Of a stretch of 64,000 nucleotides of DNA, positions 1,651 to 64,000 are shown in pieces; position 1 is the stretch's first letter, and each line of letters begins with the position of its first letter. Source of the DNA: Acidibrevibacterium fodinaquatile (GTDB lineage: Bacteria > Pseudomonadota > Alphaproteobacteria > Acetobacterales > Acetobacteraceae); NCBI RefSeq assembly GCF_003352165.1, contig NZ_CP029176.1, forward strand, positions 3,417,501-3,481,500, read 5' to 3'. Below the pieces are notes generated by a model. It was not told the origin of the DNA and did no database searches. It saw only the letters and a list, made by a program, of their open reading frames with translations. The translations under genes were made by a program, and so were the position numbers.

Positions 1651-2410
1651 GACCGGCCTCGCCCTCAGGGGTTCCGAGATAGGCGGACATCACGTCCGGG
1701 TTGCGCGAAACGGTCGCGTAATCGCCTTCGGCCACCACCCGCCCGCGCGTCAATACCGTTATGGTATCGCACAGACCTTCGACCACCGAAAGATTATGCT
1801 CGACCATGAGGATGGTTCGCCCGGCGCGCACGCGCCTGATCAGCGCGACTATTCTTTCGACATCGTCATGGGTCATGCCCGCCGTTGGCTCGTCGAGCAG
1901 CATCATTTTCGGGTCGAGCGCCAAAGTGGTCGCGATTTCCAACGCCCGCTTGCGGCCATAGGGCAGAAGCGCTGCCTCGGTTTCGGCGAATTCAGCGAGG
2001 CCGACATCTTCGAGCAGCGCCCGCGCGCGATCATCGAAGCGATGCAAAACCCGCTCCGAACGCCAGAAATCATAGGAATTGCCGCGCGCGCGCTGGAGCG
2101 CCAGGCGGACATTGACCAAAGCGGAGAGATGCGGAAACACCGCCGAAATTTGAAAACTGCGCACGAGGCCGAGCCGCGCCACCGCCGCCGGCGAAAAGCC
2201 GGTGATGTCGCGCCCGGCGAAGCGAATGCTGCCGCGTGTCGGGGCAAGGAATTTCGTCAAGAGGTTGAAACATGTGGTCTTGCCGGCACCGTTCGGGCCG
2301 ATCAAGGCATGAATGGTCCCCTCGCGCACCGCGATATCGACGCCGGCGACGGCAACGAAGCCGCGGAACTCCCGCACCAGCCCCTTCGTCTCCAGGATGA
2401 TATCGGCCAC
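1643..2410 (-). CDS. livG: Branched-chain amino acid-type ABC transporter ATP-binding protein LivG
   Basis: Second ATPase subunit of the importer, 255 aa. Walker A GPNGAGKT lies at residues 38-45. The signature region is the LivG-type variant LLPYGRKRALEIA rather than canonical LSGGQ, and Walker B is MMLLDEPTAGMTHDD. It is the first gene of the visible reverse-strand operon livG-livF-binding protein, and its start is 110 bp from the divergent MaoC gene at 2521. Any promoter must lie in that short divergent gap; I could not identify one with confidence. Confidence 0.9.
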   Translation of the reverse strand: MADIILETKGLVREFRGFVAVAGVDIAVREGTIHALIGPNGAGKTTCFNLLTKFLAPTRGSIRFAGRDITGFSPAAVARLGLVRSFQISAVFPHLSALVNVRLALQRARGNSYDFWRSERVLHRFDDRARALLEDVGLAEFAETEAALLPYGRKRALEIATTLALDPKMMLLDEPTAGMTHDDVERIVALIRRVRAGRTILMVEHNLSVVEGLCDTITVLTRGRVVAEGDYATVSRNPDVMSAYLGTPEGEAGHA

Positions 2411-2520
2411 GCGAAGACACCCCCCAACTTTATTCGTCCCTTGCGGTCATTTGCATATTGCGCGGGAGCGCGCAAGATTGCCGCCTATGGCTTGACGTAG
2501 GCGGGGAGGAAGTGTCACCG

Positions 2521-2988
2521 ATGGCGGGGCTCTATTTCGAGGAATTGCATGAGGGACGGGTGATCGATGCGGAATGGACCCGCACCATTACCGAGTCCGA
2601 TAATGTTCTTTTCTGTGGCATGACGATGAACGTGCAGAAACTTCATCTCGATGCGCATTTCGCGGCGACAACGGAATTCGGCCGCCCGTTGGTCAATTCG
2701 CTGCTGACGCTCGGCCTGATGATCGGCATGAGCGTGCATAATTCGACGCAGGGCACCACCATCGCCAATCTCGGCATGCGCGACACACGCTTTCCCGCCC
2801 CGGTCTTCGCCGGCGATACGCTGCGCGTGCAGACGACCGTGATCTCGGCGCGCCCCTCGGCATCGCGGCCGGATGCCGGGATCGTGATCTTCCGCCATGA
2901 GGCGTTCAACCAGGACGGCAAGATGGTGGCGGTTTGCGAACGTTCGGCGCTCATGCGCCGCCGCCCGGTGGTGGAGGATGCGCCATGA
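2521..2988 (+). CDS. MaoC-like (hotdog-fold) dehydratase, mesaconyl-CoA hydratase type
   Basis: Hydratase acting on an enoyl-CoA thioester, 155 aa, single MaoC domain. The segment MNVQKLHLDAHFAATTEFG carries the Asp/His pattern of the hydratase hotdog family, followed by a hydrophobic helix and a GDTLRV strand. I chose ATG 2521 because a strong Shine-Dalgarno (GGGGAGGAAG) precedes it; the open frame upstream lacks homology. Its stop overlaps the start of the CitE-like gene (ATGA), so the two are translationally coupled. That pairing suggests sequential action on the same CoA ester, such as a mesaconyl/methylmalyl-type compound. The exact substrate is inference. Confidence 0.8.
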   Translation: MAGLYFEELHEGRVIDAEWTRTITESDNVLFCGMTMNVQKLHLDAHFAATTEFGRPLVNSLLTLGLMIGMSVHNSTQGTTIANLGMRDTRFPAPVFAGDTLRVQTTVISARPSASRPDAGIVIFRHEAFNQDGKMVAVCERSALMRRRPVVEDAP

Positions 2989-3860
2989 CGCCGCGCCGCC
3001 TGCGCACGCCGCTTTTTGCGCCCGGCGATCAGCCGCGCAAAGTGGAAAAGGCGCTGGCAAGCCCCGCCGATGCCGTCATTCTCGATCTCGAGGACGCGGT
3101 CATGCCGGCGAACAAGAGCCTCGCGCGCCAGAGCGTGGCCGCCGTCCTCAAAGGGCTCGACCGGCCGGGCACGTTCGTGCGCGTCAACCCGCGCGATAGC
3201 GAGTGGTATCTCGCCGATCTCGCCGCGGTCGTCCCCGGCCGGCCGGCCGGGGTCATGCTGCCGAAATGCACTGGGCCCGAGGATCTCATCGCCCTCGATC
3301 ACCATCTCGAAAGCCTCGAAGTCAGCGCCGGGATCGCGGTCGGAAGCCTCACCGTGCTGGCGCTGGTCACCGAGACCGCGGCCTCGGTGCGCCGGCTCGA
3401 CGAGTATGGCAAGCTGCCGCGGCGTGTTCTCGCCTTCTGCTTTGCCGCCGAGGATCTTTCCGCCGATCTCGGTATTTCGCCGCGCGATGCTGAGGGCAAC
3501 CTGCGAGCACCGCTCCGGCAAGCCCGCGCCCGCATGCTGATTGCCGCCGGCGCTTTGGGCCTGCTTGCGCTCGACACCCCGTTCCCTGACCCGCGCGATC
3601 CGGCCGGGCTTGCGCGCGAAGCGCAACGGGCCGCCGAGGACGGTTTCGCCGGCAAAATTCTCATCCATCCCGGCCAGATCGCCGCGACCGAGGCGGCGTT
3701 TACCCCAAAGCCAGCGTCGATCGCCTGGGCCGAGGCGGTGATCGCCGGGTTCGCCGCCCACGGAGGGGCCGGCACCTTCGCGCTCGAGGGCAAGATGATC
3801 GACCGCCCGCATCTCAAGCTCGCCGAACGCATCCTCGCCGCCGCTGGCGTTGCGACGTAG
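2985..3860 (+). CDS. HpcH/HpaI aldolase / CitE-like acyl-CoA lyase
   Basis: Member of the citrate lyase beta-like (CitE/malyl-CoA lyase) family, 291 aa. Visible hallmarks are RTPLFAPGD near the N-terminus, the metal-binding LDLEDAV, the VNP turn after FVR, AAEDLSADLG with the acidic metal ligand, and IHPGQI near the end. The start ATG (2985) overlaps the stop of the MaoC gene and is preceded by GGTGGAGG. The family cleaves or forms (3S)-malyl- or methylmalyl-CoA-type esters with acetyl-CoA, propionyl-CoA or glyoxylate; which one applies here is not decidable from sequence. Confidence 0.8.
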   Translation: MTPRRLRTPLFAPGDQPRKVEKALASPADAVILDLEDAVMPANKSLARQSVAAVLKGLDRPGTFVRVNPRDSEWYLADLAAVVPGRPAGVMLPKCTGPEDLIALDHHLESLEVSAGIAVGSLTVLALVTETAASVRRLDEYGKLPRRVLAFCFAAEDLSADLGISPRDAEGNLRAPLRQARARMLIAAGALGLLALDTPFPDPRDPAGLAREAQRAAEDGFAGKILIHPGQIAATEAAFTPKPASIAWAEAVIAGFAAHGGAGTFALEGKMIDRPHLKLAERILAAAGVAT

Positions 3861-3931
3861 CGGCCTGCGCCTCAAAACCGCGTATCATCCATCTGCTCGC
3901 CGCGCCGGCCGCGCCGTGATATGGCGGCAGG

Positions 3932-5350
3932 ATGGCGGGACGGGACAGAGCGCGGTTCGTATGTCAGGCGTGCGGGGCGGTTGCGGCAAAATGGGCCGGG
4001 CGCTGTGAGGCGTGCGGCGCGTGGAACAGCCTCGTCGAGGAGGTGGCAACGCCGCGGCCCGGGGGCCTCGCGCGGCCGGCGCGCGGGGCAGTGCGGGGGG
4101 TCGATCTGGTCGGCCTCGCCGGCACGACGCCGCCGCCGCCACGGCGCGCGACCGGCATCGCCGAATTCGACCGGGTGCTCGGCGGCGGGTTGGTCGCGGG
4201 CTCGGCGGTGCTGGTCGGCGGCGATCCCGGGATCGGCAAATCGACGCTGATGCTGCAAGCCGCGGCGCGGCTGGCGGCGAGCGGGCAGAAGGTGATCTAC
4301 ATCACGGGCGAGGAATCGGTCGAGCAGGTGCGGCTGCGCGCCCGCCGGCTGGGGCTGGCCGAGGCGCCGGTCGAACTCGCCGCGGCGAGCCATTTGCCCG
4401 ATATCGCGGCGACCTTGGAGGCGCGGCCGGAAACCGGCCTCGTCGTCATCGATTCGATCCAGACCATGTGGCTCGATACGTTCGACGCCGTGCCGGGAAC
4501 CCTGACGCAGGTCCGCGCCGCCGGGTTCGAGCTGGTGCGGCTCGCCAAGACGCTCGGCTTCGCGCTCGTTCTGGTCGGGCATGTCACCAAGGATGGCGCG
4601 ATCGCCGGGCCGCGTGTGCTCGAACACATGGTTGACGCCGTGCTTTATTTCGAGGGCGAGCGCGGCCATCAGTTCCGGATTTTGCGCGGCGTCAAAAACC
4701 GCTTTGGCGCGACCGACGAGATCGGCGTCTTCGAAATGACCGATCATGGTCTCGCCGAGGTCGCCAATCCCTCGGCCCTCTTTCTCGCCGAGCGGCGCGG
4801 CCATATCGCCGGCTCGGCGGTGTTCGCCGGAATCGAGGGCACGCGCCCGGTGCTGCTCGAAGTCCAGGCGCTGCTCGCCCCCAATGCCGGCGGCACGCCG
4901 CGGCGGGCGGTTCTCGGCTGGGATGCCGGGCGGCTTGCGATGCTGCTCGCGGTGCTGGAGAGCCGCTGCGGCCTTCGGCTTTCGGGCAATGACGTCCATC
5001 TCAACATCGCCGGCGGCCTTCGGATCAACGAGCCGGCGGCCGATCTCGCCGTTGCCGCGGCGCTGGTTTCGGCCGCGAGCGAGACGCCGACCCGCCCCGA
5101 TACGGTCTATTTCGGCGAGGTCGGGCTTTCGGGTGAAATCCGCCAGGTGGCGCAAGCGGAAGCGCGTCTGCGCGAGGCGGCGAAGCTCGGCTTCGCCAGC
5201 GCCTGCCTGCCCCTCCGTCTTGCGCGCGGCGGCAAGCGGCTGGCGCCGCCGGAGGGGTTGCAGCTCGCGGAGATCGGCCATCTCGGTGACCTGCTGGCGA
5301 GCTTCGCGGTCGCCGCCAAGACACGCAAGCCCGACAAAACCCCGGCATGA
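3932..5350 (+). CDS. radA: DNA repair protein RadA
   Basis: RecA-like branch-migration ATPase used in recombinational repair, 472 aa (usual about 460). An N-terminal zinc finger has Cys at 11, 14, 25 and 28. The ATPase core has Walker A GGDPGIGKST at about 96-105. The RadA-specific KNRFG motif is at 255-259. The C-terminal third is a Lon-protease-like domain (VHLNIAGGLRINEPAADLAV and VGLSGEIRQV). A ribosome site (GCGGCAGG) precedes the ATG. Its stop overlaps an ATG (5347) that would open the glycosyltransferase if a single base were removed. Confidence 0.95.
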   Translation: MAGRDRARFVCQACGAVAAKWAGRCEACGAWNSLVEEVATPRPGGLARPARGAVRGVDLVGLAGTTPPPPRRATGIAEFDRVLGGGLVAGSAVLVGGDPGIGKSTLMLQAAARLAASGQKVIYITGEESVEQVRLRARRLGLAEAPVELAAASHLPDIAATLEARPETGLVVIDSIQTMWLDTFDAVPGTLTQVRAAGFELVRLAKTLGFALVLVGHVTKDGAIAGPRVLEHMVDAVLYFEGERGHQFRILRGVKNRFGATDEIGVFEMTDHGLAEVANPSALFLAERRGHIAGSAVFAGIEGTRPVLLEVQALLAPNAGGTPRRAVLGWDAGRLAMLLAVLESRCGLRLSGNDVHLNIAGGLRINEPAADLAVAAALVSAASETPTRPDTVYFGEVGLSGEIRQVAQAEARLREAAKLGFASACLPLRLARGGKRLAPPEGLQLAEIGHLGDLLASFAVAAKTRKPDKTPA

Positions 5351-58468: not shown

Positions 58469-58550
58469 GGGGGGTTTCAGGCGGCCAAATCTTTTCCTAT
58501 ATAAAACGATGGGAAGAGATGTTCTCCGGCTTGTATGAGGAGTTCAAACC

Positions 58551-58757
58551 ATGACCGCTAATGTTGGGACCGCCGATCGGGTCATCCGCATCATCGTCGG
58601 CATCGCCCTTCTCGCCTTCGCCGCTTTTGACCAAGGCGAATGGCGCTGGGTCGGCCTCATCGGTATCGTGCCGATCGCGACCGCATTGATGCGGTTTTGC
58701 CCGCTTTACTCCGTTCTCGGCATGCGGACCTGTCCGATGGCCAAGGACGCGAAATAA
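58551..58757 (+). CDS. DUF2892-type small membrane protein
   Basis: 68 aa with two hydrophobic segments (RIIVGIALLAFAAF and VGLIGIVPIATALMRF) followed by CPLYSVLGMRTC, the Cys-containing end seen in DUF2892/YgaP membrane domains. A GAGGAG ribosome site precedes the ATG. Often linked to sulfur or rhodanese proteins; none is adjacent here. Confidence 0.85.
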   Translation: MTANVGTADRVIRIIVGIALLAFAAFDQGEWRWVGLIGIVPIATALMRFCPLYSVLGMRTCPMAKDAK

Positions 58758-58763
58758 GCCCGA

Positions 58764-58787
58764 CGCGGGCGAGGGATTCCGCCCGCG
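58764..58787 (+). terminator. GC hairpin after the DUF2892 gene
   Basis: Arms CGCGGGCG (58764-58771) and CGCCCGCG (58780-58787), 8 bp, loop 8 nt, 7 bp after the stop. Weak T-tract. Confidence 0.45.
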
Positions 58788-58973
58788 CGGCCTCGATTTC
58801 TTGAGCGCTGCGGGGGATTGTTCGCGAGCTTTCTTCATCAGATGCCGGGCGCTCCATGAATACGGGGGCGCAACTGTCACGGCCAATTTAAGAACGCGAT
58901 TGCCGGGTCAATAACACCCTTGGCGCCGCCGCCGGCTTTGCTCTATGAAGTGCCGGCCCGATGCTGCGACCAG

Positions 58974-59064
<91 letters not shown>

Positions 59065-59315
59065 GCAGTCTCTGGTGAACCGCCGGTAAGGGCTCCTCGA
59101 TTCAAAACCTGGGCTGTTTGCGGTGGATTTTCGGATCCGGGGCGTCTCTGCGGGGGCGCGAAGAGTGGATTTGGCGCCGATTTGCCGGTGATTCCGATGC
59201 TTTGTCTCCGCCGCCTCGGTGACGGTCTGGTTTGAGCCGCGCGGGCGTCCTGTTCAGGACCAGGGCTACGAGCTCGCCATACCAGGGAACCGACCCGCGA
59301 TCTCGGGCGCGGCGA

Positions 59316-60012
59316 TCACGGCCGGCCGAACGCCGTCTGCTGCTCCCAGGCGAGCGGGATCGGGCGGGTCATGAGGTGCTGCAAGGTGAGCGCGGTGGGT
59401 TGGCGGCCTTCCAGGATCTGGCGCTTGAGGTGGGGGGCGAGGAAGGCGAGACGCACCATCCGTGCGATGTAGGCGGCGGTTACCCCCTCGGCGGTGGCAA
59501 TGGTTGCAAGGTTGGCGGCCTCGCCGTCGAGCAGGCGGCGCTTCCACGCCTCGGCGCGGATCAGGGCGGAGACCAGCGTCGGGTCGCGCTCGGATCGCTC
59601 GATCGGCGCCGCGCCGCCGGGGTAAAACGCGACCATCCCGCCGCTGCGGCGCGCCGTCTCCAGCGCCACGCGCACGGTGATCCCTTCGTCGGACGACGTG
59701 ATGTCAGCGTTGCCGCCAAGCCGGGCGCGCAGGGTATCAGGCTCCGGCAACGCATCAGCGGGGGCGAGCACCAGGCTGAGCCGCCCGCCGCCGATGGCCA
59801 CCTGCCGGAGATGCCGCGAGACGACAGCCCAGTCGGTTCTGTCGCCATCGGCGGGGATGAGGCCGATGCGGGCGAGACAGCGAGCGATCTGCTGCTCGAG
59901 CCGCACGGCGTTGATCCGGCAGGCGCCAGGGGCGCCGCGCTGGCCGGTCAGCAGGGGCAGGGAGATGTAGTAACGATACACCGCCCCGCCGGTGGCGTCG
60001 TGAAGTGTGTGG
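59316..60012 (-). pseudogene. C-terminal remnant of a large serine recombinase, cut by an IS
   Basis: Reads FHTLHDATGGAVYRYYISL and onward to a stop at 59316, about 232 codons. The sequence matches the end of large serine recombinases: the YRYYIS zinc-domain entry, LIRAEAWKRRLLDGEAANL, EGVTAAYIARMVRLAFLAP, ILEGRQP and the closing PIPLAWEQQ. The catalytic N-terminal domain is missing because the IS1111-type element joins at 60013. The N-terminal half would be expected beyond the right edge of the window. The gap 59064-59315 between the tRNA and this remnant shows no gene. Confidence 0.85.
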
Positions 60013-60014
60013 AA

Positions 60015-60135
60015 CGTATGGCCCGCCCCGCCTGCAAGTGATTTTTCCGATGGACTGGTCAGTCTGCGTCAACGTATCCGGCCTCAGAGCAAGCTCTCGA
60101 CCAAGATGGAGATCCGCGCGCTCTGGTTCTCATAA
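60015..60135. mobile_element. IS1111-type element, left-end fragment A (121 bp)
   Basis: Starts with CGTATGGCCCGCCCC, the same left end as fragments B, C and the full copy D. It is identical to their first 121 bp and stops at CTCATAA, where copy B begins. In B, C and D the sequence continues TTCTGTCGG. The remaining bases TTCTG appear at 62667-62671, right after the end of D, so A looks like a host copy split by a second insertion. Confidence 0.9.
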
Positions 60136-60714
60136 CGTATGGCCCGCCCCGCCTGCAAGTGATTTTTCCGATGGACTGGTCAGTCTGCGTCAACGTATCC
60201 GGCCTCAGAGCAAGCTCTCGACCAAGATGGAGATCCGCGCGCTCTGGTTCTCATAATTCTGTCGGCGACAAGTCCGCCATTCCACACATCAGATTTCCAG
60301 AACACCGATCGACTGTCAGGCCATCTTTCTTCCACCACCCGCAAACATCATGGACCGGTAGCCGATCATCATATCAGCACCGGTCGATTTCGGTCACACC
60401 GTCACACCAACGGCTTTGGCGTCAAATTTGTCGCCGTGACGTAAGACGGCCCACGCAATCCGTGCCAGCTTATTGGCCAATGCGACGACTACGGCGTTCT
60501 TATGCACCCTGGTGATCAGCCCCCGCAGCCATCCGCCGAGTGGCGTGGCGCTGGTCAGCAGACCTGGCAGGGCGGAGCGTGCACCATGGATCAACTGCTT
60601 GCGCAGATATTTGTTGCCGCGCTTGCTGATCCCGACAAGCCGGGGTCGTCCGCCTGTCGTGATCTGACGCGGCACCAAACCCAGCCAGGCGGCAAGATCG
60701 CGGCCATGACCGAA
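60136..60714. mobile_element. IS1111-type element, left-part fragment B (579 bp)
   Basis: Holds the complete 3' noncoding end (60136-60393) and the C-terminal part of the transposase gene, then stops at GACCGAA inside that gene, where fragment C begins. It matches C over the full 579 bp as far as I could compare. Confidence 0.92.
60394..60714 (-). pseudogene. Truncated IS110/IS1111 transposase, C-terminal part (in fragment B)
   Basis: About 106 codons from FGHGRDLAAWLGLVPRQ to the stop, identical to the end of the full transposase. It contains the C-terminal Transposase_20 region with GGRPRLVGISKRGNKYLRK but none of the N-terminal DEDD catalytic residues. It cannot be an active recombinase on its own. 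Confidence 0.9.
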
Positions 60715-61293
60715 CGTATGGCCCGCCCCGCCTGCAAGTGATTTTTCCGATGGACTGGTCAGTCTGCGTCAACGTATCCGGCCTCAGAGCAAGCTCTCGA
60801 CCAAGATGGAGATCCGCGCGCTCTGGTTCTCATAATTCTGTCGGCGACAAGTCCGCCATTCCACACATCAGATTTCCAGAACACCGATCGACTGTCAGGC
60901 CATCTTTCTTCCACCACCCGCAAACATCATGGACCGGTAGCCGATCATCATATCAGCACCGGTCGATTTCGGTCACACCGTCACACCAACGGCTTTGGCG
61001 TCAAATTTGTCGCCGTGACGTAAGACGGCCCACGCAATCCGTGCCAGCTTATTGGCCAATGCGACGACTACGGCGTTCTTATGCACCCTGGTGATCAGCC
61101 CCCGCAGCCATCCGCCGAGTGGCGTGGCGCTGGTCAGCAGACCTGGCAGGGCGGAGCGTGCACCATGGATCAACTGCTTGCGCAGATATTTGTTGCCGCG
61201 CTTGCTGATCCCGACAAGCCGGGGTCGTCCGCCTGTCGTGATCTGACGCGGCACCAAACCCAGCCAGGCGGCAAGATCGCGGCCATGACCGAA
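60715..61293. mobile_element. IS1111-type element, left-part fragment C (579 bp)
   Basis: Second tandem copy of the same 579-bp unit, again ending at GACCGAA, where the full copy D begins. Both boundaries are the same as for B, so B and C form an exact head-to-tail array with D. Confidence 0.92.
60973..61293 (-). pseudogene. Truncated IS110/IS1111 transposase, C-terminal part (in fragment C)
   Basis: Same 106-codon C-terminal fragment as in B, with the same truncation point at the FGHGRD codons. No start of its own can be supported beyond chance ATGs. Confidence 0.9.
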
Positions 61294-61551
61294 CGTATGG
61301 CCCGCCCCGCCTGCAAGTGATTTTTCCGATGGACTGGTCAGTCTGCGTCAACGTATCCGGCCTCAGAGCAAGCTCTCGACCAAGATGGAGATCCGCGCGC
61401 TCTGGTTCTCATAATTCTGTCGGCGACAAGTCCGCCATTCCACACATCAGATTTCCAGAACACCGATCGACTGTCAGGCCATCTTTCTTCCACCACCCGC
61501 AAACATCATGGACCGGTAGCCGATCATCATATCAGCACCGGTCGATTTCGG
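61294..61551 (-). ncRNA. Candidate guide (bridge/seek) RNA region of the IS1111-type element
   Basis: 258-bp noncoding segment directly after the transposase stop. IS1111-type elements keep their target-choosing RNA in this 3' position, which is established for the subgroup. Here the assignment rests on position and on the fact that the segment is kept unchanged in every copy (60136-60393 and 60715-60972 as complete repeats, 60015-60135 in part). I did not derive a reliable secondary structure or target/donor loops. Confidence 0.5.
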
Positions 61552-62598
61552 TCACACCGTCACACCAACGGCTTTGGCGTCAAATTTGTCGCCGTGACGT
61601 AAGACGGCCCACGCAATCCGTGCCAGCTTATTGGCCAATGCGACGACTACGGCGTTCTTATGCACCCTGGTGATCAGCCCCCGCAGCCATCCGCCGAGTG
61701 GCGTGGCGCTGGTCAGCAGACCTGGCAGGGCGGAGCGTGCACCATGGATCAACTGCTTGCGCAGATATTTGTTGCCGCGCTTGCTGATCCCGACAAGCCG
61801 GGGTCGTCCGCCTGTCGTGATCTGACGCGGCACCAAACCCAGCCAGGCGGCAAGATCGCGGCCATGACCGAAACTCTCACCCTTGCCGATCGCGGCGATC
61901 AGCGCGGTGGCGTTGACCGGGCCGATACCAGGGATCGAAAGCAGCCTGCGGGCCGCCTCATCGGCGCGGGCACGAGCAACAAATTCGTCGTCGAAAGCCT
62001 CGATCCGGTGATCCAGTTCGCGCCATTCCTTCCGCATGTCGGCAATGAGCGCTTGCGTTCGTGGAGACAACGCGATGCTACCTCCGTCGTTCTGATCGAA
62101 CCGCCCCACCAGATATTGCGCGAGCTTGCTCCGCCCCTTTGGCACGGTAATCCCCCGTTCAAGAAGGATAGCGCGTAGCTGATTGATCAGCGCCGTACGT
62201 TCCACCACCAGGCGATCCCGCGCCCGATGCAACGTCTGCACGTCAAGCTGTTCCTCGCTTTTGAGATCTACAAAGCGCATCGTCGGCCGGGTCGCTGCTT
62301 CAGCGATCGCCTCGGCGTCCCGATCATCGTTCTTCTGCGCTTTCACATACGGGCGCACATATTCCGGCGACATCAGCCGGACCGTGTGACCCTGAGCCGC
62401 CAACAGCCGCCCGAGATAATGGGCGCCACAGCATGCCTCCATGGCGATCACACACGCCGGGATCTTCGCCGTAAAGGCCGTCACGCTGTCCGGCCGCATC
62501 CGGCGCCGTTTCACCACCGCGCCGCTCGCATCCAACCCCGCGAGACTGCAACTGTTCTTGCCCAGATCGATCCCCAATACCGCGATCTCTTTCGTCAT
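61552..62598 (-). CDS. IS110-family (IS1111 subgroup) transposase
   Basis: 348 aa, intact. The N-terminal RuvC-like DEDD domain shows Asp in GIDLGKN, Glu in VIAMEACCGAHY and Asp pair in KNDDRDAEAI. A coiled linker (about 120-220) is followed by the Transposase_20 domain: SIPGIGPVNATALIAAIG and LVPRQITTGGRPRLVGIS with the catalytic Ser region. The start at 62598 matches the family N-terminus MTKEIAVLGIDLGK. It is the only complete transposase of the array and could act on all truncated copies. Confidence 0.95.
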   Translation of the reverse strand: MTKEIAVLGIDLGKNSCSLAGLDASGAVVKRRRMRPDSVTAFTAKIPACVIAMEACCGAHYLGRLLAAQGHTVRLMSPEYVRPYVKAQKNDDRDAEAIAEAATRPTMRFVDLKSEEQLDVQTLHRARDRLVVERTALINQLRAILLERGITVPKGRSKLAQYLVGRFDQNDGGSIALSPRTQALIADMRKEWRELDHRIEAFDDEFVARARADEAARRLLSIPGIGPVNATALIAAIGKGESFGHGRDLAAWLGLVPRQITTGGRPRLVGISKRGNKYLRKQLIHGARSALPGLLTSATPLGGWLRGLITRVHKNAVVVALANKLARIAWAVLRHGDKFDAKAVGVTV

Positions 62599-62670
62599 GG
62601 CACTTTCCTTTCGCTGGCCCCAGCAGACTATACACCGCCGGGGGAAAGGAGCGGGCCATCCCATAATTCT

Positions 62671-64000
62671 GGGTGGCGTAATCTCCGGGTGAGTTCAACC
62701 ACCAGACTCGGCGTTGTCGCGCCGATGGAGATCACGCCATGGAGAAGAATAGCACGGGAACGCCGGAAGCCAGCCTTTTTGATGGAGAGGGCTGGTTCGA
62801 CGCGATTGAGGCGGGGGTGCGGGATCGGATCCGCGGGTTCATCGAGAACATGCTGGAGGAGGAGCTGACGACGGCGCTGGGGCGGGAGCGATATCGCCGT
62901 GGTGGCGAGGCAACAGGATATCGCCATGGTGTCCGTCATCGGCAAATCCTCGGCTCGTTCGGCCCGCTCGAGATTACGGTGCCGCGGGGGCGGATGCCGA
63001 AGCCCGGGGGTGGAACGGCGGAATGGCAAAGTGCCACGCTGCCTCGTTATGCCCGGATGACGAAGCAGGTGGAGGCGTTGATTGCGGCGACCTATCTCGC
63101 CGGCACGAACACGCGGCGGGTAAGGCGGGCATTGGGGGCGTTGTTCAAGGGGGCAGTGGGCAAGGACGTGGTCAGCCGCACGTGGAGAAAGGTCAAGGCG
63201 GACTGGGACGGCTGGAACCGGCGGAGCCTGGCCGACGAGGATACCGTCAGGCTGATCCTCGACGGCACGGTGGTGAAGGTCCGGCTCGACCGGAAAGCGA
63301 CCAACATCTCGCTGCTGGTCGTTCTCGGCGTCCGCCGCGACGGGCAGAAGGTTTTGCTGGCGGTGAAGAACATGGGTGGCGAGAGCGAGGCCGCCTGGCG
63401 GGCGGTGCTCGATGACCTGATCGCGCGGGGTCTGCGGACGCCGGACCTGTTGCTGATCGATGGCGGTGCCGGCCTCGAACGCGCCCTGGCCAGCCTTTGG
63501 CCCGAGGTGCCGACCCAGCGCTGCACAGTCCACAAGCATCGAAATCTGCTCGCGCACGCTCCCGAGGCGCTGCACGAGGAGATCACGGCCGACTACAACG
63601 ACATGATCTACGCCGATACCAGCGCCGAGGTGATGCGCCGGCGCCGGCTGTTCCTGGCCAAATGGCGCCTGAAATGCCGCGGTGTCGCCGACAGCCTTGA
63701 GGAAGCCGGCGATCGGCTGTTCACCTTCACCCGATTGCCCAAAAGCCAGTGGAAATCGGCAAGAACGACGAATGCGATCGAACGCCTGCACGAGGAGTTC
63801 AAGCGCCGGATCAAAACCCAGACCGTCCTGCCTTCGGCAGAGACCGCGGCGATGCTGTTCTGGTCATTGCTCGCATCCGGGCAGGTCACCATGCGCAAAG
63901 TCGACGGGTGGCAGAGCCTCGGAGAGCCACCCGCCTCAATGCCTCTTGATCTCGTCGCCTGACCTCGTCATGCTCCCCAAACCGGAGACGCCGCCAAAGG
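62671..64000 (+). mobile_element. IS256-family insertion sequence (right tip at or beyond window end)
   Basis: Left inverted repeat TGGCGTAATCTCCGG (62674-62688) matches the reverse of CCGGAGACGCCGCCA (63982-63996) at 12 of 15 bases. These flank one transposase gene. The left tip is probably at 62671 or a base or two beside it. It lies 5 bp from the end of the IS1111-type copy. The right target repeat is outside the window. Confidence 0.85.
62739..63962 (+). CDS. IS256-family (Mutator-like) transposase
   Basis: 407 aa, intact. The N-terminal region FIENMLEEELTTALGRERYRR and RHRQILGSFGPLEITVPRGR are typical. The DDE core shows Asp in LILDGTVVKVRLDRK, Asp in LLLIDGGAGLERALASLWP and Glu in NAIERLHEEFKRR. 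CTVHKHRNLL is the conserved C...H motif of the family. The ORF starts 68 bp inside the left end. Confidence 0.95.
   Translation: MEKNSTGTPEASLFDGEGWFDAIEAGVRDRIRGFIENMLEEELTTALGRERYRRGGEATGYRHGVRHRQILGSFGPLEITVPRGRMPKPGGGTAEWQSATLPRYARMTKQVEALIAATYLAGTNTRRVRRALGALFKGAVGKDVVSRTWRKVKADWDGWNRRSLADEDTVRLILDGTVVKVRLDRKATNISLLVVLGVRRDGQKVLLAVKNMGGESEAAWRAVLDDLIARGLRTPDLLLIDGGAGLERALASLWPEVPTQRCTVHKHRNLLAHAPEALHEEITADYNDMIYADTSAEVMRRRRLFLAKWRLKCRGVADSLEEAGDRLFTFTRLPKSQWKSARTTNAIERLHEEFKRRIKTQTVLPSAETAAMLFWSLLASGQVTMRKVDGWQSLGEPPASMPLDLVA

What the first reader, a model, noticed from the sequence alone, without database searches (positions are those of the whole stretch)
60013..62671. An IS1111-type element that has inserted into copies of itself
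The same left end appears four times in a row: 121 bp (A), 579 bp (B), 579 bp (C) and the complete 1371-bp element (D). A is cut at CTCATAA, and the next native bases (TTCTG) reappear directly after the right end of D at 62667-62671. This is what is expected if a copy landed inside A. B and C are both cut at GACCGAA within the transposase gene. Nested self-insertion followed by recombination between identical right halves would leave exactly left-left-left-right. Only one intact transposase remains.
Basis: partly seen in the sequence, partly recalled or inferred. Interest (0 to 1): 0.82.

Follow-up and report, generated by a model that had tools for sequence, protein, structure and literature searches.

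The report
Jumping gene duplicating its guide-RNA end
A bacterial jumping gene that finds its targets with a small guide RNA has, at two places in one genome, piled up tandem copies of its own guide-RNA end, and one of the cuts falls inside the DNA that encodes the guide, as if the machine mistook its own address label for the address.

Summary
The array is real: three left-anchored partial copies (121, 579, 579 bp) plus one complete 1373-bp IS1111-family element. The 'rest of A' reading is wrong: TTCTG right of D is the normal target flank, seen at all 7 two-ended copies in this genome, which share one site in IS256-family elements; beyond that IS256 lie an 8-bp duplication and the interrupted serine-recombinase gene. 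A second array (six 167-bp units plus a full copy) lies elsewhere in the genome; Roseomonas sp. KE2513 has a third (92 and 124 bp). All five distinct junctions join the exact guide-side end to an internal TT core, which points to the element's own recombinase. The 121-bp cut, and within one base the Roseomonas 124-bp cut, fall in DNA encoding the seekRNA's B guide, which copies the left-flank/left-end junction; the 579-bp cut resembles the left-end repeat; the 167- and 92-bp cuts are unexplained. Best reading: internal pseudo-left-ends misused in excision-type recombination, then tandem expansion. Nested insertion plus homologous deletion remains possible. B, C, D and all six 167-bp units carry the predicted seekRNA: natural guide-RNA arrays. 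New variant of a known kind.

The parts
59316..59981 (-). C-terminal fragment of an interrupted serine recombinase gene (N-terminal ORF beyond the window, L021 4969-6015)
   Evidence: N-terminal ORF has PF00239 Resolvase 1.1e-36 and PF07508 Recombinase 2e-17; the C-terminal fragment itself has no Pfam or NCBIfam hit
59983..59990 (.). 8-bp target duplication GCCCCGCC of the IS256 composite (other copy directly after the IS256 right end, from 64029, outside the window)
59991..60014 (+). left terminal 24 bp of the IS256-family element = right flank (RF) of the IS1111 target
60015..60135 (-). unit A, 121 bp: guide-side end of the IS1111 element up to the cut inside the B-guide DNA (CTCATAA)
   Evidence: no seekRNA model hit
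60136..60714 (-). unit B, 579 bp: whole non-coding region with seekRNA plus the 3' part of the transposase gene, cut at GACCGAA
   Evidence: seekRNA model hit 60232-60312, 80 bits
60715..61293 (-). unit C, 579 bp, identical to B
   Evidence: seekRNA model hit 60811-60891, 80 bits
61294..62666 (-). unit D, complete IS1111-family element, 1373 bp (CGT-ATGGCCCGC ... GCGGGCCAT-CCCATAA)
61552..62598 (-). intact DEDD transposase/recombinase, 348 aa from MTKE (a start 22 codons upstream is also open), with GLVPRQITTG
61390..61470 (-). predicted seekRNA of unit D (covariance-model hit, 80 bits; 67-nt core 61397-61463)
61437..61446 (-). T guide TGTGTGGAAT, complementary to the target's right flank
61410..61419 (-). 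B guide CAGAATTATG, copies left flank CAGAA + left end TTATG; the homologous position is the cut of unit A
61860..61872 (-). internal left-end-like sequence (TT, 5 nt, ATGGCC) at which units B and C are cut
62667..64000 (+). remainder of the IS256-family element (runs to 64028); its first bases TTCTGGG are the left flank (LF) of the IS1111 target
62739..63962 (+). IS256-family transposase, 407 aa
   Evidence: PF00872; NF033543, 268.5 bits

Best explanation
An IS1111-family element sits at its guide-specified site in the end of an IS256-family element. Its RNA-guided recombinase joins a true guide-side end (ACG|TT, read in transposase direction) to internal TT cores that it mistakes for the element's left end: once at the DNA encoding the seekRNA's B guide, which copies the left-flank/left-end junction (unit A), and once at an internal sequence with part of the subterminal repeat at the right 7-nt spacing (units B, C). 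Acting between sister copies, or by excising and re-inserting a minicircle, this excision-type reaction adds a partial unit next to the end. Homologous exchange between identical units then multiplies them (B to C; six 167-bp units in the second array). Shown: the structure, the exact-end and TT-core junctions, the guide assignments by comparison, the likeness of two cuts to the left junction or left end, and the predicted seekRNA in B, C, D and the 167-bp units. Inferred: the direct excision-type route, the minicircle or sister exchange, and the expansion. The 167- and 92-bp cut sites have no explanation beyond the TT core.
For: Five distinct junctions (own 121, 167, 579; Roseomonas 92, 124) begin at the exact element end and have AA/TT at the joint. 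The own-genome search was made with the whole element, so partial copies starting elsewhere would have shown; the only identical piece not starting at the end is the full copy split by another insertion. Of 48 internal TT sites, site 121 ranks 1 for left flank + left end (14 of 23), and site 579 ties first for the 16-bp left end (9 of 16, three tied) and for the 9-bp subterminal repeat (6 of 9, two tied). B slot matches the left flank by 3-7 contiguous bases in 15 of 15 elements with a known left flank (mean 5.0 against 0.74 for wrong pairings, 0 of 5000 permutations); T slot mean 6.65 against 4.67 in 20 elements, 0 of 2000. The same guide position is cut in Roseomonas sp. KE2513. A covariance model built without this genome finds the seekRNA at 80 bits in B, C and D and at 51.5 bits in all six 167-bp units. 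IS621 of the related IS110 group is reported to make rare deletions and inversions between insertion sites (PMC11208160, passages).
Against: The 167-bp cut ranks only 19 of 48 for flank + left end, and the 579-bp cut ranks 10 on that combined score, below its neighbour 580; its flank does not match the guide. The Roseomonas 92-bp cut was judged by eye. Site 121 also ranks first for the empty target (9 of 17), so nested insertion there is not excluded. In 6 of 20 elements the T-slot match is 4-5 bases, about the chance mean. In this genome alone, 2 of 3 junctions in the non-coding region is not significant (P 0.09). No reciprocal deletion product was found: 7 of 7 IS256 left ends adjoin an IS1111 end. 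The Roseomonas downstream copy differs from its units at 6 of 59 bases and is interrupted by another IS1111-family element, so it is not their direct parent. Arrays are rare: 2 stretches in the genome-contig scan for 70-130-bp units, one an assembly artefact.
Confidence: 0.6

Rival explanations
1. Nested self-insertion: circles of the element inserted into internal off-target sites of resident copies, and homologous recombination between the duplicated left parts then deleted the remainders.
For: Gives the same end structure; site 121 is also the best internal match to the empty target (9 of 17, rank 1 of 48); tandem repeats of about 0.8-1.25 kb would recombine readily (general knowledge).
Against: Needs an extra deletion for each of the three arrays, and no intermediate was seen at any of the five junctions; site 579 scores 3 of 17 for the target (rank 44 of 48) but ties first for the left end; at site 121 only TT matches the right-flank side at the start.
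Confidence: 0.3
2. Replication slippage or microhomology-mediated tandem duplication unrelated to the recombinase.
For: At the three joints of this genome two to four bases are shared between internal site and flank (AA, GAA, GAAC in plus orientation; read by eye).
Against: All five distinct junctions start at the exact element end; slippage would not choose that base each time.
Confidence: 0.05
3. Assembly artefact.
For: Repeats are hard to assemble; one apparent array, in Novosphingobium panipatense P5:ABC, is exactly that (N at the joint, the same 87-bp shift at both ends).
Against: Two different arrays in a 4-contig genome, both inside composites with intact 8-bp duplications; a third in another genus whose two units differ by one base.
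Confidence: 0.05

Closest known systems
IS1111-family insertion sequences with seekRNA (ISEc11, ISKpn4, ISPa11; PMC11187229: abstract, introduction, results and discussion read)
   Same: DEDD transposase, subterminal repeats with 7- and 3-base extensions, downstream non-coding region, T guide before B guide, one target and orientation
   Different: The sections read treat single elements; I saw no mention there of tandem seekRNA-bearing partial units or of cuts in the guide DNA
IS4321/IS5075, IS1111 members that target the ends of Tn21-like transposons (PMC5001619, passages; Partridge and Hall 2003 seen only as a reference)
   Same: An IS1111 element aimed at the end of another mobile element
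   Different: Target here is the left end of an IS256-family element; full circle junctions of IS4321 were counted there, partial circles were not among the passages seen
IS621 and bridge RNA (PMC11208160, 12 passages of 41)
   Same: RNA-guided recombinase able to rearrange DNA between recognised sites
   Different: IS110 group, guide RNA in the other end; the off-target events described came from an assay, not from scars in a guide gene; the word 'tandem' does not occur in its main text
TIGR-Tas guide arrays (PMC12045711, 12 passages of 37)
   Same: Tandem guide RNA units read by a protein related to the IS110 RNA-binding domain
   Different: TIGR arrays need a Tas protein and hold varied spacers; here the units are identical and the protein is a transposase. 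That paper describes the IS110 bridge RNA as a single two-stem unit

Membership tests
IS1111 family | DEDD N-terminal and Transposase_20 C-terminal domains | tested here: met
   PF01548 9.6e-19, PF02371 4.1e-22; NF033542 2.8e-95
IS1111 family | Subterminal inverted repeats with 7-bp and 3-bp extensions | tested here: met
   TTATGGG-ATGGCCCGC and GCGGGCCAT-ACG; the repeat is 9 bp by my reading, shorter than the usual 11-13 bp given in PMC11187229
IS1111 family | Long non-coding region downstream of the transposase gene | tested here: met
   258 bp between stop codon and element end
IS1111 family | GL-P----S(t)G motif | tested here: met
   GLVPRQITTG in the ORF; motif as given in PMC11187229
IS1111 family | seekRNA with top-strand complement 5' of the bottom-strand match | tested here: met
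   T guide starts 27 nt upstream of B guide; B slot matches in 15 of 15, T slot better than permutations over 20 elements though weak in 6
IS1111 family | One specific target and orientation | tested here: met
   7 of 7 two-ended copies at the same site of IS256-family elements, one of these IS256 only 85% identical
IS1111 family | Circular intermediate and RNA bound to transposase | not testable with these tools
   needs DNA and RNA from the organism
TIGR array | Tas protein | tested here: not met
   NF052498 TIGR_Tas_endo only 22.5 bits against a cut-off of 100
TIGR array | Different spacers in successive units | tested here: not met
   six 167-bp units are 100% identical to the element

The most novel reading that the evidence does not exclude
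RNA-guided IS1111 recombinases use the DNA that encodes their own guide as a recombination site and so build tandem arrays of seekRNA cassettes. The arrays are transcribed as multi-guide RNAs that act in trans on other copies, and this route shows how guide arrays could arise from, or collapse to, the single-guide transposons related to TIGR systems.
Probability: 0.15. Interest if true: 0.85.

Novelty: new variant of a known kind. Interest (0 to 1): 0.6.

Why it matters
Any RNA-guided DNA recombinase carries, in its guide gene, DNA that matches its own guide. How IS110 and IS1111 elements avoid acting on it was not addressed in the papers and passages I saw. These scars suggest that they sometimes fail, and show where. 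That makes self-targeting of guide DNA directly testable in existing IS1111 assays, bears on seekRNA and bridge-RNA editing tools (the guide plasmid is itself a possible substrate), and gives a natural example of tandem guide-RNA units in a family described as having single guides.

Tried and rejected
Remainder of A beyond the IS256: looked for and not found. Empty IS256 target or reciprocal deletion scars in the genome: none (0 matches with up to 3 mismatches, 7 places, all adjoining the element's end). Arrays elsewhere: genome-contig scan for 70-130-bp units gave 2 stretches, one an assembly artefact (records near our genome may be left out there); viral contigs 0 for that pattern and, for the guide-cut joint, one match with no intact element ends near it, taken as chance; 130-190-bp units in 1 of 385 class genomes, only our own; guide-cut joint in 2 of 395 order genomes, our own and KE2513; plasmids, 30 rows listed of 100 records, each a single end of about 120-128 bp. 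Units longer than 190 bp were not searched for outside this genome. Left ends at contig starts in drafts (G204, G266, G062) say nothing about arrays. Rfam: 3 matches up to E 1 in 58500-64000, none inside the array. Positional statistics: 4 of 5 junctions in the non-coding region (9 of 48 TT sites), P 0.005; 2 of 3 in this genome alone, P 0.09; 2 of 5 at the B guide, P 0.004, or 0.016 if a neighbouring site is allowed. These mix two genomes, use this genome's TT map and ignore that short units may survive better. Literature searches for such arrays: (listings; none describes them in the titles and abstract starts shown); one listed paper with 'tandem copies' and IS110 proved to concern CRISPR repeats (PMC6352166, passages). 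The library holds open-licence papers only.

Dropped rows: 8 of the 28 ends extracted were left out (3 from the KE2513 array, 4 shorter than 200 nt, 1 without the TTAT-type motif by which the B slot was located); the left flank is unknown for 5 of the 20 kept. Model R1 used 18 of those 20 (this genome left out on purpose; L076 fell out of the extraction pattern). The shuffles ignore relatedness, and the structure was derived from the same alignment.

Full report
What is there. At window 60015-62666 lie three left-anchored partial copies (A 121 bp, B and C 579 bp) and one complete 1373-bp element (D), identical where they overlap. D is an IS1111-family insertion sequence: its minus-strand transposase has both IS110-type domains, the ends carry subterminal repeats with 7- and 3-base extensions, and 258 bp of non-coding DNA follow the transposase gene.

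Where it sits. The array lies in the left end of an IS256-family element, 24 bp from its tip. The composite has interrupted a serine recombinase gene near a tRNA-Ser and is bounded by the 8-bp duplication GCCCCGCC; the N-terminal part of the recombinase follows on the far side. All 7 copies with both ends in this genome are at the same site of IS256-family elements, one of them an IS256 relative only 85% identical although its IS1111 is 100% identical. So TTCTG after D is the normal target flank, not the continuation of A.

The guide RNA. In an alignment of 18 relatives a conserved RNA hairpin lies in the non-coding region: 96.1% of cells pair and 9 of 20 pairs change on both sides (0 and 1 of 500 shuffles reach these values). 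In 20 elements, this genome's included, guide slots were compared with flanks: the B slot matches the left flank by 3-7 contiguous bases in 15 of 15 with a known left flank (mean 5.0 against 0.74 for wrong pairings; 0 of 5000 permutations), and the T slot is complementary to the right flank (mean longest match 6.65 against 4.67; 0 of 2000), though in 6 of 20 the T match is only 4-5 bases. The order T then B is that of IS1111 seekRNAs (PMC11187229). After the B slot comes TTATGAG in 17 of the 20 (which were selected for a TTAT-type motif there), like the element's own left end TTATGGG or TTATGGA. The guide gene therefore contains a near copy of the junction between left flank and left end: here CAGAA|TTATGAG against the real CAGAA|TTATGGG.

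The cuts. Unit A is cut exactly there. In Roseomonas sp. KE2513 (G383, another genus of the family; contig length and array agree with record NZ_RCVR01000059.1) a 124-bp unit is cut at the homologous place, within one base in a run of T. Units B and C are cut at TT-CGGTC-ATGGCC, which has part of the subterminal repeat at the proper spacing; among 48 TT sites it ties first for likeness to the left end, but ranks 10 when the flank is added. The second array in this genome has six 167-bp units followed by a full copy whose transposase gene carries an insertion with IS3-type transposase domains; its cut lies 3 nt inside the 5' strand of the predicted seekRNA stem, and the new joint still allows the stem to form (-23.7 against -25.7 kcal/mol). 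It ranks only 19 of 48 as a left junction. The Roseomonas 92-bp cut is at a TT nearer the end. All five distinct junctions begin at the exact element end; for this genome the search used the whole element, so this is not a result of searching with the end.

Mechanism. Exact ends and TT cores at each joint point to the element's recombinase. Because two of the three cuts here resemble the left junction or left end more than the rest of the element does, the simplest route is excision-type recombination of a true guide-side end with an internal pseudo-left-end, in trans or through a minicircle, followed by ordinary exchange between identical units. Nested insertion with later homologous deletion gives the same product; it needs extra steps, and its intermediates were not seen, but neither were the reciprocal deletions that the direct route predicts. 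I give 0.6 to the direct route and 0.3 to the nested one.

Consequence. A covariance model made from 18 relatives without this genome finds the seekRNA in B, C and D (80 bits each), in the second array's full copy (80 bits) and in all six 167-bp units (51.5 bits, E 4.4e-9), but not in A and not convincingly in the Roseomonas units (best 14.7 bits, E 0.66); background matches inside the IS256 transposase reach 18.9 bits. So two loci are tandem arrays of predicted seekRNA genes, with 3 and 7 copies. Whether they are expressed or matter is unknown; the guides are identical, so nothing here shows selection.

How common. In the family sample 29 of 397 genomes have the exact 15-base end; arrays were recognised in 2, though only the first places of each genome are listed. 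Many of these genomes are drafts of tens to hundreds of contigs in which such arrays could collapse, so the frequency is a lower bound.

Limits. No reads, no RNA data. The Roseomonas array's downstream copy differs from its units at 6 of 59 bases and is itself interrupted by another IS1111/IS110-type element, so its history is more complex. The 167- and 92-bp cut sites are unexplained beyond the TT core.

Noticed in passing
L020 about 3725-5052 (own genome C1:3018224-3019551): A 1328-bp insertion whose two ORFs have HTH_Tnp_1 and rve (IS3-type) domains interrupts the transposase gene of the full copy in the second array; a similar junction was seen by eye in the diverged IS1111 remnant of L026.
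   Followed up: partly
L069 about 1697-3046 (Roseomonas sp. KE2513): A different IS110/IS1111-type element (410-aa ORF, PF02371 and PF01548) has inserted into the non-coding region of the array's last copy.
   Followed up: partly
own genome, 6 composites with a readable right end: Only the two composites that carry arrays have an 8-bp target duplication; the four single-copy ones have none, which may mean later recombination between copies. A seventh could not be read.
   Followed up: partly
own genome C1:1503038: One copy lacks one A at the junction (GTGTGTGGA|CGT), while its other end is normal.
   Followed up: no
window 58974-59063: tRNA-Ser (cga) close to the interrupted serine recombinase gene, possibly the edge of an integrated island.
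   Followed up: no
L090 2164-3692 (Novosphingobium panipatense P5:ABC): Apparent 87-bp tandem end is a scaffolding artefact: N at the joint and the same doubling at both ends of the element.
   Followed up: yes
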